A stretch of DNA of 18,817 nucleotides, taken from Oehlia diaphana (Eukaryota > Glomeromycota > Glomeromycetes > Glomerales > Glomeraceae). The stretch spans positions 1 to 18,817 of the forward strand of contig QZLH01002633.1 in the NCBI GenBank assembly GCA_003833135.1, given 5' to 3'. The translations under genes were made by a program, and so were the position numbers. The notes beneath the pieces were generated by a model that worked only from the letters and a program-made list of their open reading frames with translations, had not been told where the DNA came from and did no database searches. Positions 3-17,943 of this stretch are shown piece by piece; the first letter of the stretch is position 1; the number at the start of each line of letters is the position of its first letter.

Positions 3-199
3 CCCTTCCCTTTGGTGGTGGGTCTCATGTCTTATTATCAACATGACAGTACCTCTGCACGAGTTTGATCACTCACGATATATCGTTAATGTCAGTTGAT
101 AGTAGGCATGGGGGCTTGAATCTGTCTTTTCTACAAAGCTTACTTAGAGTACTCGAGTCTTCTAACATAATTTTTACCATATATTCTATTTTTTAGATT
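3..199. repeat. Direct repeat, copy 1 (partner at 461-655)
   Basis: About 195 bp, nearly identical to the copy starting at 461; the spacing is 458 bp. The copies differ by a 2-bp indel (AA at 169-170) and a few substitutions, and similarity stops in a T-rich stretch before position 200. Copy 1 reaches the window edge, so a longer array may continue to the left. The repeat holds a perfect 12-bp palindrome, ACGATATATCGT, at 74-85. No coding potential is evident. It may be a tandemly duplicated non-coding repeat or part of an LTR-like element; the sequence here does not decide. Confidence 0.9.
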
Positions 200-3205: not shown

Positions 3206-3512
3206 CACATTATTGTTTTCACAGATTATTTTTTTTTCGCGTTTTTTTGATTTAATAAATAAAAAATAATGATTTAAATTTATTGATAATATATAATAAA
3301 TAAAAAAAAAAAATTATTTAAATTACAAACTAAGAAATGTGTAAAATATTTTACTACTCTAGCCTTAGTGTTTAAATAATCCAATAAAATTTTCAATATT
3401 GTTTGTTTGTAAATATAAGTTTTAAAATCCATCTAAAAAAGTAATATATACAAATAATATAAATTAGTAATTAAGATATTATCTAAACAATATTAAGAAA
3501 AATATTAAGAAA
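3206..3512. other. AT-rich 3' flank of the kinase gene
   Basis: Downstream of the kinase stop codon on the minus strand. It is low-complexity A/T sequence that presumably holds the 3' UTR and polyadenylation region. Nothing more specific could be supported. Confidence 0.4.
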
Positions 3513-5706
3513 CTAACCATCAGGAATCTCAAATTCATCTTGATCTTCTGAATGAAGGTTTGGATTATTATGTATTTCATCACCATCTATAAAGGACAAA
3601 AGTTTTTAATTTAAACATTGCAAAAAATAAAATGAAAATTTAGAACAAAATAAATTTTACTTACCATTAACTGATCCTTTCATTTGTTGCATTGTTTCTT
3701 TCTTATGATCATTTTGAATGTCTAAATAAATAATATTATAATAAATGTTGCTTAATAAACATTATTATATAAAATAGTATTACTTACCATTCTTTGAACT
3801 TATTTGTAAACGATTAAATAATTCAGATAATCTTTTACTACCACCTAAAATTGAAATAAATTTGTATCATTATTTCAAAAATTTGAATATATAAATAAAT
3901 TACCTTTAAAAATACTATTTATTTTTGATGTTTTATTAATCTTCTCATCGTTTGAATTATTAAAATCTTCAACTAAAAAACGAAAATTTGATTAATAAAT
4001 ATTTAATCAAATGAAATACTTAATAAATACCTACTATTATCAGGAATATTAAAATCATATGCTTTACTATGAAATGCTATTTAAAAAATAAGAAAAATAG
4101 GTTATAAGTAAATTATTATAATAATTAATAAAATAACAATAAAAAAGTTAACCTTCTTGTTCTTCTATATAATATCATTTAAATTAAAAAAAAAATTAGT
4201 AATGTCATCATATCTTAATCAATAAAAAAAAAACTTAATAAATAATACCTTCTGTTGCATTTTTTGGTTCGGGTAAATTCTCAAATTGATGAACTTTGCT
4301 CGTAAATAATCTGCTGCTTACGTAATTTGTGCTAGTTTTTATTTCAAAATTATTCACTGCTTTTGGCTGGAAAAATTCATCTGGGATATTTTGATATGAT
4401 AGATGAATTTTCGATATTTTTTCTTGAAGAGATTCAATATCAAGTCTTTTTAATGGATCAGCATCCCAACATTGTACCATTAAATTTTTATATTCTAAAG
4501 GAATATCTGACATAATTTCTGGTCTCATACCATTAATTATATCCATTGCAAGATTATAATCATCATGCTTATAATTAATAAATGGTGGTTGTCCAGATGA
4601 AATTTCCCACATAAGTATTGCAATACTATAAATATCAGATGCAAAAGTATATCCTTTTCCAATAATAACTTCTGGTGCTATGTAAGGGAGATTTCCATAT
4701 ATACTTTTTGATGATTTATCAGCAGGTCCACAAAATCCAAGATCACTAATATTCCAAAAATCATTAAATTGTGAAAATAATATATTTACAGAGTGCAAAT
4801 CTCTATGAATTGCCTTCTCCAAATGAATCCCAAATAGTGCAACAGTTATTCAAAAGTAATTTTAATTCTTTCTTTCCATGTAAGTTGATTATAATTTTGC
4901 TGTAAATAATTTCTTAAATCCATATCCATTTTTCTCATTACAAGCATATAATTTCCATTTGATAAATCTTGTGTTAAACCAAAACATTTGACAATTGCTG
5001 TCCAATTATTACCTATAGTTAAATGTGATTTAGTCTAAATGATAACATCCATTGTTAATACAAAAAACATTAAATATCATAAAAAAACTTAAAATATAAT
5101 CATACTGTATGTACCTCTTCAAACCAACTTTGATTTGCGTTTTCAAACATTTTCTAATTTTTTAAGTATTACTTTAATAGTTTTAGATCTTTTTAATTGC
5201 TGTTCCTTACAATTCCAGTTTTTATATCTTCCACCAATCCACGTTGCTGTATAAATTTCAGAAAATCCACCTTTTGTTAGATATTTAATATTTTCTAGAT
5301 TATTATATGGAAACCATTCAACTATTCTACTTGGCTTAAGCGCTTCCGATTGACATTTCTGTATTAAATTATCAATATCATTATTTCCGGATGTCCAATT
5401 TTTAAAATTTGCTTTTAAATAATTTCGAACACAATATTCACAATATAATGTAGCTAAACATTCTTGTTTACAATTTTCACAAATTCTTTTTGTTCCTGAA
5501 TTAGCATTAACTTTATTTCGGTCATAAGTTTTAGTTATGTAATTTATTGCTTCAGTTTTTTCATCATCTGTAAGAAGTTTATCATCAAGAATAAATTGTT
5601 TTTGAAATTCATATTGTTTGTGAATGTCAGTGTGAATATTATAATCAATTAACGTATATGCTCTATGCGCTGTTGCATAAACTAATTCTCCTCGAATAGT
5701 AGACAT
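3513..5706 (-). CDS. TKL-type protein kinase, 8 exons, two frame-breaking indels
   Basis: Proposed exons, minus strand: 5706-5115, 5034-4249, 4164-4153, 4076-4035, 3972-3904, 3844-3788, 3721-3665, 3586-3513; every intron is GT-AG. If the frame is read through two 1-nt indels the product is 562 residues. Visible parts: Cys cluster CxxCx3Cx5CxxC (76-92); glycine loop TKGGFSEIY (144-152); VAIK-type Lys182; HRDLHSVN with Asp276 and Asn281; DLG in place of DFG (295-297); APE (317-319). All catalytic residues are present, so this is an active-type Ser/Thr or dual-specificity kinase of the AM-fungal expansion, probably cytoplasmic signalling; substrate unknown. Frame breaks: one extra T in the TTT at 5145-5147 (after LENV) and one missing A at 4849-4850 (before ITVALFGIH). 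They are +1 and -1, both in homopolymers, so they may be assembly errors, or the gene is decaying. The ATG at 5706 is the first in frame. A hAT transposon end begins 15 bp upstream. Confidence 0.9.
4153..4164 (-). other. 12-nt micro-exon (exon 3) of the kinase
   Basis: AAGAACAAGAAG lies between an ATATAG acceptor and a GTTAAC donor. It is entered and left in phase 1, so it adds exactly four residues and joins ...NATE to EEQE to AFHSKAYDF. The joined tail matches my recollection of tails in this fungal kinase family, which supports the micro-exon over simple exon 2 read-through (which would end in GIIY and a stop). Confidence 0.75.
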
Positions 5707-7775: not shown

Positions 7776-8342
7776 TTAGGGAGAATTCTGGAATTCCATG
7801 TCTTGCTTATCATAAGAAACAGTTCCGTTTACTGCTGTATTATGAACGTCATTATTTGAATATACTTGGGAAGTAGGTTGAGTATTATCGAAGGATAGTT
7901 GTTGAATATCATTTTGTTGATAAACAGGATGTTGGACTTGTTGCTGAATCTGTTGTCGAATTAGAGATTGTAAATTATAATGATCAGGTAAAAGGTAATC
8001 AGGGATATGAGATAGATTAATTCCATTATTCAAGAGTTGAACATTTTCTGACGGATTTAATTCAGAATAAATAACACGATATATACGAGTATCATTTGGT
8101 AAATGAAAATAAAACTCAAATATATTATGAGGCGCAGGTGTTGTAAAATTAATAGTATTATTAATGTGCAAGGTATTTAAATTCGTATCAGATACTCCAA
8201 CATTGTTAATTAAAGTATGTTGGATGTTTTTATTGTTATTATTATTATTATTATTAGGAATTTGTTGAGGAGCGGTATTATTTCTAGTTTGATCCATTAG
8301 TAAATTATAGAAATCGCGTGTATTTTGGTTATTTGAATTCAT
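7776..8342 (-). CDS. Asn/Gln-rich protein of unknown function
   Basis: A single-exon frame of 188 codons from ATG at 8342 to TAA at 7776. The frame is open for eight more codons upstream but has no other ATG. Residues 30-37 are eight consecutive Asn, encoded by a trinucleotide repeat near 8234-8257. A middle segment (about 72-122) is less biased and may be folded, with FEFYFHLPNDTRIYRVIY and IPDYLLPDHYN. Residues 126-150 are Gln-rich (IRQQIQQQVQ). There is no signal peptide or membrane segment, so it is intracellular; such composition is common in fungal transcription regulators, but I do not recognise the family. A damaged copy of its 3' end lies inverted at 10046-10207, which shows the sequence has been duplicated and supports it being, or having been, a real gene. 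Confidence 0.7.
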   Translation of the reverse strand: MNSNNQNTRDFYNLLMDQTRNNTAPQQIPNNNNNNNNKNIQHTLINNVGVSDTNLNTLHINNTINFTTPAPHNIFEFYFHLPNDTRIYRVIYSELNPSENVQLLNNGINLSHIPDYLLPDHYNLQSLIRQQIQQQVQHPVYQQNDIQQLSFDNTQPTSQVYSNNDVHNTAVNGTVSYDKQDMEFQNSP

Positions 8343-8585
8343 GTTGATCAAAAACCAAATGAACAATAATAATTAATATAATTATATAATTATATAATTA
8401 GGAAATATAAAATTTGAAAGCAAACTAATTTTTTATTCTTTAGATGGAAAGTTTTTCTTTTGACAGGAAAGAATTGGCTTTATTTATATACGATTGAGTT
8501 CCTCAAAAACCAGTTCTCACTTTCAGATATTTCTTATTTTAGAAATACTGAATGAGGTGATCATTCTATATTATATAAGGGTTTT
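8343..8585 (-). promoter_or_regulatory. Upstream region of the Asn/Gln-rich gene
   Basis: ATTATATAATTATATAAT at 8381-8398 is a perfect A/T palindrome 40-57 nt upstream of the ATG and could serve as a TATA-like element for the minus-strand gene. The rest shows no recognisable signal. Confidence 0.35.
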
Positions 8586-17330: not shown

Positions 17331-17436
17331 AATGGCATGAAAATGATTTTAATAATATCAAAAAAATAATATTCTTTACCTTTTTTTACAAGAATAAATC
17401 AAAATTTCACATTTCTTTCCATATCATTCTCAGAAT

Positions 17437-17943
17437 ATGTTTGCTCAATTATATATTATATATATATTCTTTTTAGTTTCGGCTGTAGTAGGAGTACCTG
17501 TAGAAAATTTACGAAATCAGACTTTTAGCACTGATAGTATTAAATTTATACCCACTAAGCCTAGATGCACTGATCCTATTTATACTAAATATATAAGCTC
17601 CGTTTGTGCTACAAGGAAATCAGCGAGGGTTACATGTGAATCTTATGATCTTCCAGGCACAATTGTAGATACTCATTTTAGCTGTGGAGAAGGCGAATCT
17701 TGTATTGATATTACCTCAAATGATGCATTTTGTGTTGATGAAAACAGTAAGCTTGTTCAAGAATGGGAAAATAATCATGTTGATGGAAGAGTATGTTCAG
17801 CACCTGTTTTAATAGTGCCACCACCAAATCTTTTTAGTCTTGCAGCTGGAATAACAACATATTCAACAACTGGGGATCCAATACAAGTAACTTCGCTAGA
17901 AGCAAGATATGATGATAAAAATTCAGATGATTATACAGAATAA
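17437..17943 (+). CDS. Small secreted Cys-rich protein, effector candidate
   Basis: 168 residues from ATG. Residues 1-19 form a clear signal peptide (hydrophobic IIYIFFLVSAVVG, cleavage near G19/V20). The mature part has seven Cys (44, 57, 67, 83, 89, 99, 120), one N-glycosylation site (NQT, 27-29) and a proline cluster (PPP, 128-130), and it lacks a membrane segment. It therefore enters the secretory pathway and is probably exported; the size and Cys content match effector-like proteins of mycorrhizal fungi. No family was recognised. The odd Cys count and acidic end suggest the 3' end may not be final: 18015-18067 could encode an extra hydrophobic last exon. A TATA box and a tandem-repeat array lie upstream. 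Confidence 0.8.
   Translation: MFAQLYIIYIFFLVSAVVGVPVENLRNQTFSTDSIKFIPTKPRCTDPIYTKYISSVCATRKSARVTCESYDLPGTIVDTHFSCGEGESCIDITSNDAFCVDENSKLVQEWENNHVDGRVCSAPVLIVPPPNLFSLAAGITTYSTTGDPIQVTSLEARYDDKNSDDYTE

What the first reader, a model, noticed from the sequence alone, without database searches (positions are those of the whole stretch)
3587..4248. Kinase tail built from five symmetrical phase-1 exons, all multiples of three
Exons 3-7 are 12, 42, 69, 57 and 57 nt, and every intron from 2 to 7 is phase 1. Any subset of these exons can be skipped without breaking the frame, so one gene could make up to 32 tail variants behind a constant kinase domain. In a family with many copies this would be a cheap way to diversify docking or regulation.
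Basis: partly seen in the sequence, partly recalled or inferred. Interest (0 to 1): 0.75.

Follow-up and report, generated by a model that had tools for sequence, protein, structure and literature searches.

The report
Fungal kinase tail of in-frame exons
A fungal kinase gene ends in a floppy tail made of six tiny exons that can each be copied or lost without upsetting the reading frame; many sister genes share this build, and there is good evidence that it let evolution vary the tails but none yet that the cell mixes them by splicing.

Summary
Exons 3-7 (12, 42, 69, 57, 57 nt) with phase-1 introns are as described. The genome is that of Rhizophagus (Oehlia) diaphanus or something very close. 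In 47 paralogous loci, 253 of 263 mapped tail exons are phase 1-1. One paralog carries a mixed array of seven exon-7-type and five exon-8-type exons, 11 of 12 phase 1-1. The tail is predicted disordered. Exons 4 and 8 share a short HS...[FL]xIPD motif and have the lowest omega of the parts measured. The splicing claim is untested: all 9 R. diaphanus models matched to a fetched locus contain every module mapped there, fungi show little exon skipping (PMC6142364, passages), and models lacking a module are few. I read the design as gene-level, frame-neutral exon duplication and length drift. The window copy has two frame breaks, so it is a poor witness for isoforms.

The parts
5115..5706 (-). Exon 1: ATG at 5704-5706 to the donor at 5114; N-terminal region with Cys pairs and start of the kinase N-lobe; frame break near 5144
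   Evidence: Read; aligns with annotated Rhizophagus kinases
4249..5034 (-). Exon 2: rest of the kinase domain; second frame break near 4847; ends ACA GAA G| at 4249 (phase 1)
   Evidence: Pfam PF00069 83.2 bits and PF07714 80.2 bits over 4250-4849
4153..4164 (-). Exon 3 (12 nt, phase 1-1), EEQE microexon
4035..4076 (-). Exon 4 (42 nt, phase 1-1), AFHSKAYDFNIPDN motif; lowest omega of the parts measured
3904..3972 (-). Exon 5 (69 nt, phase 1-1)
3788..3844 (-). Exon 6 (57 nt, phase 1-1)
3665..3721 (-). Exon 7 (57 nt, phase 1-1)
3518..3586 (-).
3422..3432 (-). Exon 9 (11 nt incl. stop), DGF* terminal microexon
   Evidence: annotated relatives end IPDDGF

Best explanation
This is one copy of a much-amplified arbuscular-mycorrhizal-fungus kinase family whose C-terminal tail is a string of class 1-1 exons encoding a disordered chain with two related short motifs (exon 4 and exon 8) separated by variable spacers (exons 5-7). 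Shown: exon structure, its conservation in paralogs, whole-exon duplication in some paralogs, purifying selection strongest on exons 4 and 8, predicted disorder. Inferred: because every boundary is phase 1, unequal recombination can add or drop exons without a frameshift, and because the product is disordered it tolerates the change, so the family diversifies its tails gene by gene; the two motifs are probably docking or regulatory sites. Most transcripts are expected to include all exons.
For: 253 of 263 mapped tail exons phase 1-1 in 47 loci, all six modules found in 33 of 47; L080 with seven e7-type and five e8-type exons, 11 of 12 phase 1-1; duplicated e6-e7 in L050; annotated R. irregularis proteins with repeated cassettes P0002, P0027, P0028 and P0032; e4-e8 profile match P 4e-4, score reached by 0 of 100 column shuffles, the other nine module pairs P 0.03-0.6; omega e4 0.20, e8 0.32, e5-e7 0.50-0.65, kinase halves 0.41 and 0.58 (modules of the first map); tail pLDDT under 50 over 395-540 of P0001; full-inclusion models for 9 of 9 matched R. 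diaphanus genes.
Against: No RNA data; the models may hide minor isoforms. Clean whole-exon loss in DNA is weaker than duplication: several apparent losses in the first map proved to be GC-donor or short exons, and 14 of 47 loci had a module my map did not find, some through limits of the map. My module references were cut at phase-1 borders, which favours phase-1 calls. The e4-e8 likeness is short (13 columns, HHalign probability only 34.7%, ten pairs tested) and could be convergence. Omega pairs are not independent, and the bootstrap range of e8 (0.25-0.43) overlaps that of the N-terminal kinase half (0.37-0.45).
Confidence: 0.68

Rival explanations
1. Regulated exon skipping: a single gene makes a set of tail variants (up to 32, or 64 with exon 8) behind a constant kinase, as schistosome micro-exon genes make variant secreted proteins.
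For: All combinations stay in frame. Of 15 pairs of listed proteins at least 95% identical outside gaps, two R. clarus pairs (98.2% and 95.8%) differ by exon 7 (P0026/P0038, P0059/P0120) and P0091/P0095, otherwise 100% identical, differ by 5 aa at the exon 5/6 border. Module absences fall on module borders. GC donors occur only on e6 and e7 in the map (6 of 263 donors).
Against: None of 9 matched R. diaphanus models skips a mapped module. Of the other 12 pairs, seven have the same tail and five differ at the tail end (one of them also by an insertion before e4). Fungi have comparatively low exon skipping, and enrichment for frame-preserving skipping is reported for animals (PMC6142364, abstract and passages). 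Gene callers can miss microexons and GC donors. The 95.8% pair may be two genes.
Confidence: 0.17
2. Intron retention, common in non-animal eukaryotes, truncates the tail at varied points, giving graded loss of the exon 5-9 part and its second motif.
For: Retention of any of introns 2-8 in the window meets an in-frame stop inside the intron (intron 2; introns 3-8); in paralogs 184 of 191 mapped introns between adjacent modules would do so (first map). P0100 appears to read on past exon 8 where P0109, 99.3% identical, ends in DGF.
Against: Stops are expected by chance in AT-rich introns of 59-85 nt; no RNA data.
Confidence: 0.08
3. The window copy is a pseudogene and its neat exons are only an inherited relic.
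For: Two frame breaks in short homopolymer runs near 5144 and 4847; V in place of the nearly invariant G of the HRDLHSGN loop.
Against: Omega against the six nearest paralogs 0.36-0.61, much like that among five of those paralogs (0.33-0.58); tail splice sites and tail frame intact; single-base homopolymer breaks are also typical assembly errors. It would not change the family-level result.
Confidence: 0.07

Closest known systems
Class 1-1 (symmetric phase-1) exon modules and exon shuffling, best known in animal extracellular proteins (recalled, no call)
   Same: Modules bounded by phase-1 introns, multiplied within a gene (L080)
   Different: Here the modules are short stretches of a disordered kinase tail in a fungus, not folded extracellular domains; transfer to unrelated genes was not shown
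Schistosome micro-exon genes (MEGs)
   Same: Very small symmetric exons that allow frame-neutral alternative splicing (PMC4350168, passages)
   Different: MEGs have most of the coding region in such exons, are found in secretions or glands and appear restricted to platyhelminths (same passages); here only the tail is so built, behind a kinase domain, and splice variants are not demonstrated
Amplified kinase families of Rhizophagus
   Same: High-copy serine/threonine/tyrosine kinase genes; expanded families that occasionally form tandem arrays (PMC8647823, passages); Pfam PF07714/PF00069
   Different: The exon design of the tail is not mentioned in the passages I saw; I did not read the whole paper

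Membership tests
Protein kinase, PF07714/PF00069 (amplified Rhizophagus kinase family) | Kinase domain above the curated Pfam cut-off | tested here: met
   Exon 2 of the window: PF00069 83.2 bits (cut-off 31.7), PF07714 80.2 (23.1); relative P0001 108.7 and 122.4
Protein kinase, PF07714/PF00069 (amplified Rhizophagus kinase family) | Intact reading frame in this copy | tested here: not met
   Two frame breaks near 5144 and 4847; assembly error not excluded
Class 1-1 exon modules | Each module exon bounded by phase-1 introns | tested here: met
   Window e3-e8; 253 of 263 exons in 47 loci
Class 1-1 exon modules | Tandem duplication of modules in frame | tested here: met
   L080, 11 of 12 e7/e8-type exons phase 1-1; L050
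Class 1-1 exon modules | Module transferred into non-homologous genes | not tested
   Only kinase loci were examined; P0002 has no kinase match at E 0.001 but may be a fragmentary model
Alternatively spliced cassette exons | RNA showing both inclusion and skipping | not testable with these tools
   No RNA data; annotation pairs only
Schistosome-type micro-exon gene | Most of the coding region in very small symmetric exons | tested here: not met
   Exons 1 and 2 are 592 and 786 nt; only the last about 105 residues are so built
Schistosome-type micro-exon gene | Secreted product | not tested
   No signal-peptide prediction was run

The most novel reading that the evidence does not exclude
A fungal, MEG-like system: dozens of symbiont kinase genes share a tail of exchangeable microexon cassettes, and regulated skipping (helped by GC donors on exons 6 and 7) sets the number and spacing of two related docking motifs, giving a combinatorial kinase-partner code in a fungus.
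Probability: 0.14. Interest if true: 0.78.

Novelty: new variant of a known kind. Interest (0 to 1): 0.5.

Why it matters
It turns an unexplained feature of a hugely amplified symbiont kinase family, its variable tails, into a testable design: constant catalytic domain, two conserved tail motifs, and frame-neutral exon cassettes that can be counted, skipped or multiplied. It also gives a clean fungal case for asking whether symmetric exons are exploited by splicing or only by evolution, and it warns that microexons and GC donors can make annotated kinase tails unreliable.

Tried and rejected
Whole-exon loss as the main source of tail variety: my first map suggested many losses, but several were GC-donor or short exons and vanished in the second map, so I no longer claim frequent loss.

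Dual coding of exon 6: L067 and L068 can be read in two frames through acceptors and donors shifted by 4 nt (read by eye). Since the ancestral-frame reading there needs only a GC donor, I treat the other frame in P0111, P0114 and P0115 as a likely modelling artefact, not a finding; this was not tested.

Minor (U12-type) introns as the reason for phase 1: R. irregularis has them with a phase bias away from 0 (PMC10639083, passages), but the donor consensus here is GTAAGT/GTAATT-like, so I did not pursue it; no minor-intron scoring was run.

Cis docking of the tail on the kinase: the AlphaFold model gives no confident tail position, so it neither supports nor excludes it. Only one structure was predicted; no fold search was run. 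The search of solved structures found only kinase-domain relatives among the 60 of 563 shown.

Literature: searches listed no title that describes this tail or splice isoforms of these kinases; I saw listings only, apart from four papers (PMC6142364, PMC10639083, PMC4350168, PMC8647823) of which I saw search passages. The library is open-access only.

Full report
What was checked. The minus strand of 3422-5706 holds a kinase gene. Exons 3-7 have exactly the lengths reported and are bounded by AG/GT, with a phase-1 intron on both sides. Exon 4 has a second possible donor 4 nt further on that would shift the frame; 42 nt is also the commonest exon-4 length in the paralogs (35 of 46).

The sequence at its end reads GATG|GTTAGT: a phase-1 donor that overlaps the TAG taken as the stop. 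After an 85-nt intron comes AG|ATGGATTTTAA, which completes the frame as D-G-F-stop. Among 39 paralog loci with a mapped exon 8 (the window included), 37 have a phase-1 donor within 4 nt of the same place and 18 have an xGF* microexon downstream. Of 97 aligned annotated tails, 43 end in DGF. So the tail most likely has six symmetric exons and a terminal microexon. This is inference from sequence; no junction reads were available.

Where it comes from. The window is contig C1641 of a 108.8-Mb assembly. Ten of the 120 listed homologous proteins (of 264 found) are named Rhizophagus diaphanus; seven match fetched loci of this genome at 99-100%, two at 93-97%, and one (P0063) has no close match among the fetched loci. 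The taxonomy now calls the species Oehlia diaphana.

Paralogs. A search of the genome with the exon-2 protein gave 150 scored matches, a lower bound. I mapped the tails of 47 of them, the window included (30 loci cut out by that search and 17 fetched; L061 and L062 were dropped as duplicates of L032 and L033). Candidate exons in all three phases were scored against module peptides taken from annotated proteins. In the second map, which allows GC donors, 253 of 263 exons are phase 1-1, and 33 of 47 loci have all six modules. Three cautions: the reference peptides were cut at phase-1 borders, which favours that result; a few mapped exons are probably spurious (for instance a second e3 in L043); and a missing module is often a miss of the map, since the annotated models matching L036, L047 and L076 contain modules it lacked. 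By eye, seven loci of a sister subfamily with another tail also show a phase-1 intron after the NLPEPKN anchor.

Duplication. L080 (C595, downstream of an exon-2 match of 64% identity) has e3, e4 and e5, then seven e7-type and five e8-type exons, mostly 69 nt and mostly alternating: 15 module exons found, 14 of them phase 1-1 and the last one uncertain (58 nt, phases 1-2). L050 has extra 6-7 cassettes. Annotated R. irregularis proteins P0002, P0027, P0028 and P0032 show repeated cassettes too. This is direct evidence that the symmetric exons have been multiplied in frame.

Tail properties. A model of P0001 built on 61 sequences gives pLDDT below 50 for residues 395-540, which includes the whole tail. 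Exon 4 and exon 8 profiles match over 13 columns (HS...[FL]xIPD) with P 4e-4, HHalign probability 34.7%; 0 of 100 column shuffles reach the score, and the other nine pairs give P 0.03 to 0.6. Pairwise omega, on the exons of the first map, is 0.20 for e4 (bootstrap 0.14-0.29), 0.32 for e8 (0.25-0.43), 0.52, 0.50 and 0.65 for e5, e6 and e7, and 0.41 (0.37-0.45) and 0.58 (0.53-0.65) for the N- and C-terminal parts of the kinase exon. e4 and e8 are each below the C-terminal kinase part in 200 of 200 bootstraps, and e8 is below all of e5-e7 in 193 of 200; e8 is not clearly below the N-terminal kinase part. So all modules behave as translated sequence and the two motif exons have the lowest values.

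Splicing. Each of the nine matched R. diaphanus models contains all modules mapped in its locus, read by eye. Among 97 aligned proteins (names seen: R. irregularis, R. clarus, R. diaphanus, Glomus cerebriforme), 3 lack e3, 5 e6, 8 e7, 3 e8, none e4 or e5. Of 15 pairs of listed proteins at least 95% identical outside gaps, two R. clarus pairs differ by e7, one R. irregularis pair by five residues at the e5/e6 border, five differ at the tail end, and seven have the same tail. Some of these may be isoforms. But e3 is tiny and some e6/e7 donors are GC (6 of 263 in the map, all on e6 or e7; L067 probably as well), which gene callers can miss; against that, model P0053 includes the GC-donor e6 of L079, so this artefact is not universal. 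The database is clustered at 90% identity, so many isoform pairs would be hidden. A survey of 65 eukaryotes found comparatively low exon skipping in fungi (PMC6142364, abstract and passages). I therefore keep regulated skipping as a minority reading.

The window copy. Frames break near 5144 and near 4847. Among the 30 best matches, the open frame over exon 2 is 258-309 aa in 28 and 1374 aa in one, against 204 here; lower in the list of 150 there are shorter frames and matches with internal stops. Omega of this copy against its nearest paralogs is normal, so the breaks are recent or are assembly errors. It also has V for the nearly invariant G in HRDLHSGN.

Verdict. Its demonstrated use is evolutionary. 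Its use by alternative splicing remains open and is cheaply testable with existing RNA reads.

Noticed in passing
L067, L068 exon 6: Exon 6 can be read in two frames, both 48 nt and phase 1-1, through acceptors and donors shifted by 4 nt; the ancestral frame needs a GC donor. Annotated relatives exist in both readings (P0084 against P0115).
   Followed up: partly
Exons 6 and 7 of L052, L068, L069, L072, L079: GC-AG introns occur in these tails, all on e6 or e7 donors (6 of 263); the R. diaphanus model P0053 includes the one of L079.
   Followed up: partly
47 paralog loci: Synonymous divergence is lower in the kinase exon (pS 0.25-0.31) than in tail exons (0.35-0.47), as if gene conversion homogenised the kinase part; kinase and tail distances correlate only moderately (Spearman 0.56, 603 pairs).
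   Followed up: no
window 3-173 and 461-631: A 171-nt direct repeat, 99% identical, start-to-start spacing 458.
   Followed up: no
window 17398-17943 (+): 181-aa open frame whose first Met is followed by a hydrophobic stretch and then a cysteine-containing region, looking like a secreted protein; no Pfam match at E 0.1.
   Followed up: no
window 7779-8372 (-): 198-aa asparagine-rich open frame without a Pfam match at E 0.1.
   Followed up: no
L007, L015, L018, L025, L026, L028, L029: A sister subfamily with the same NLPEPKN-like anchor but another tail (SLQIDISQLKI-like in some) also has phase-1 tail introns, read by eye.
   Followed up: partly
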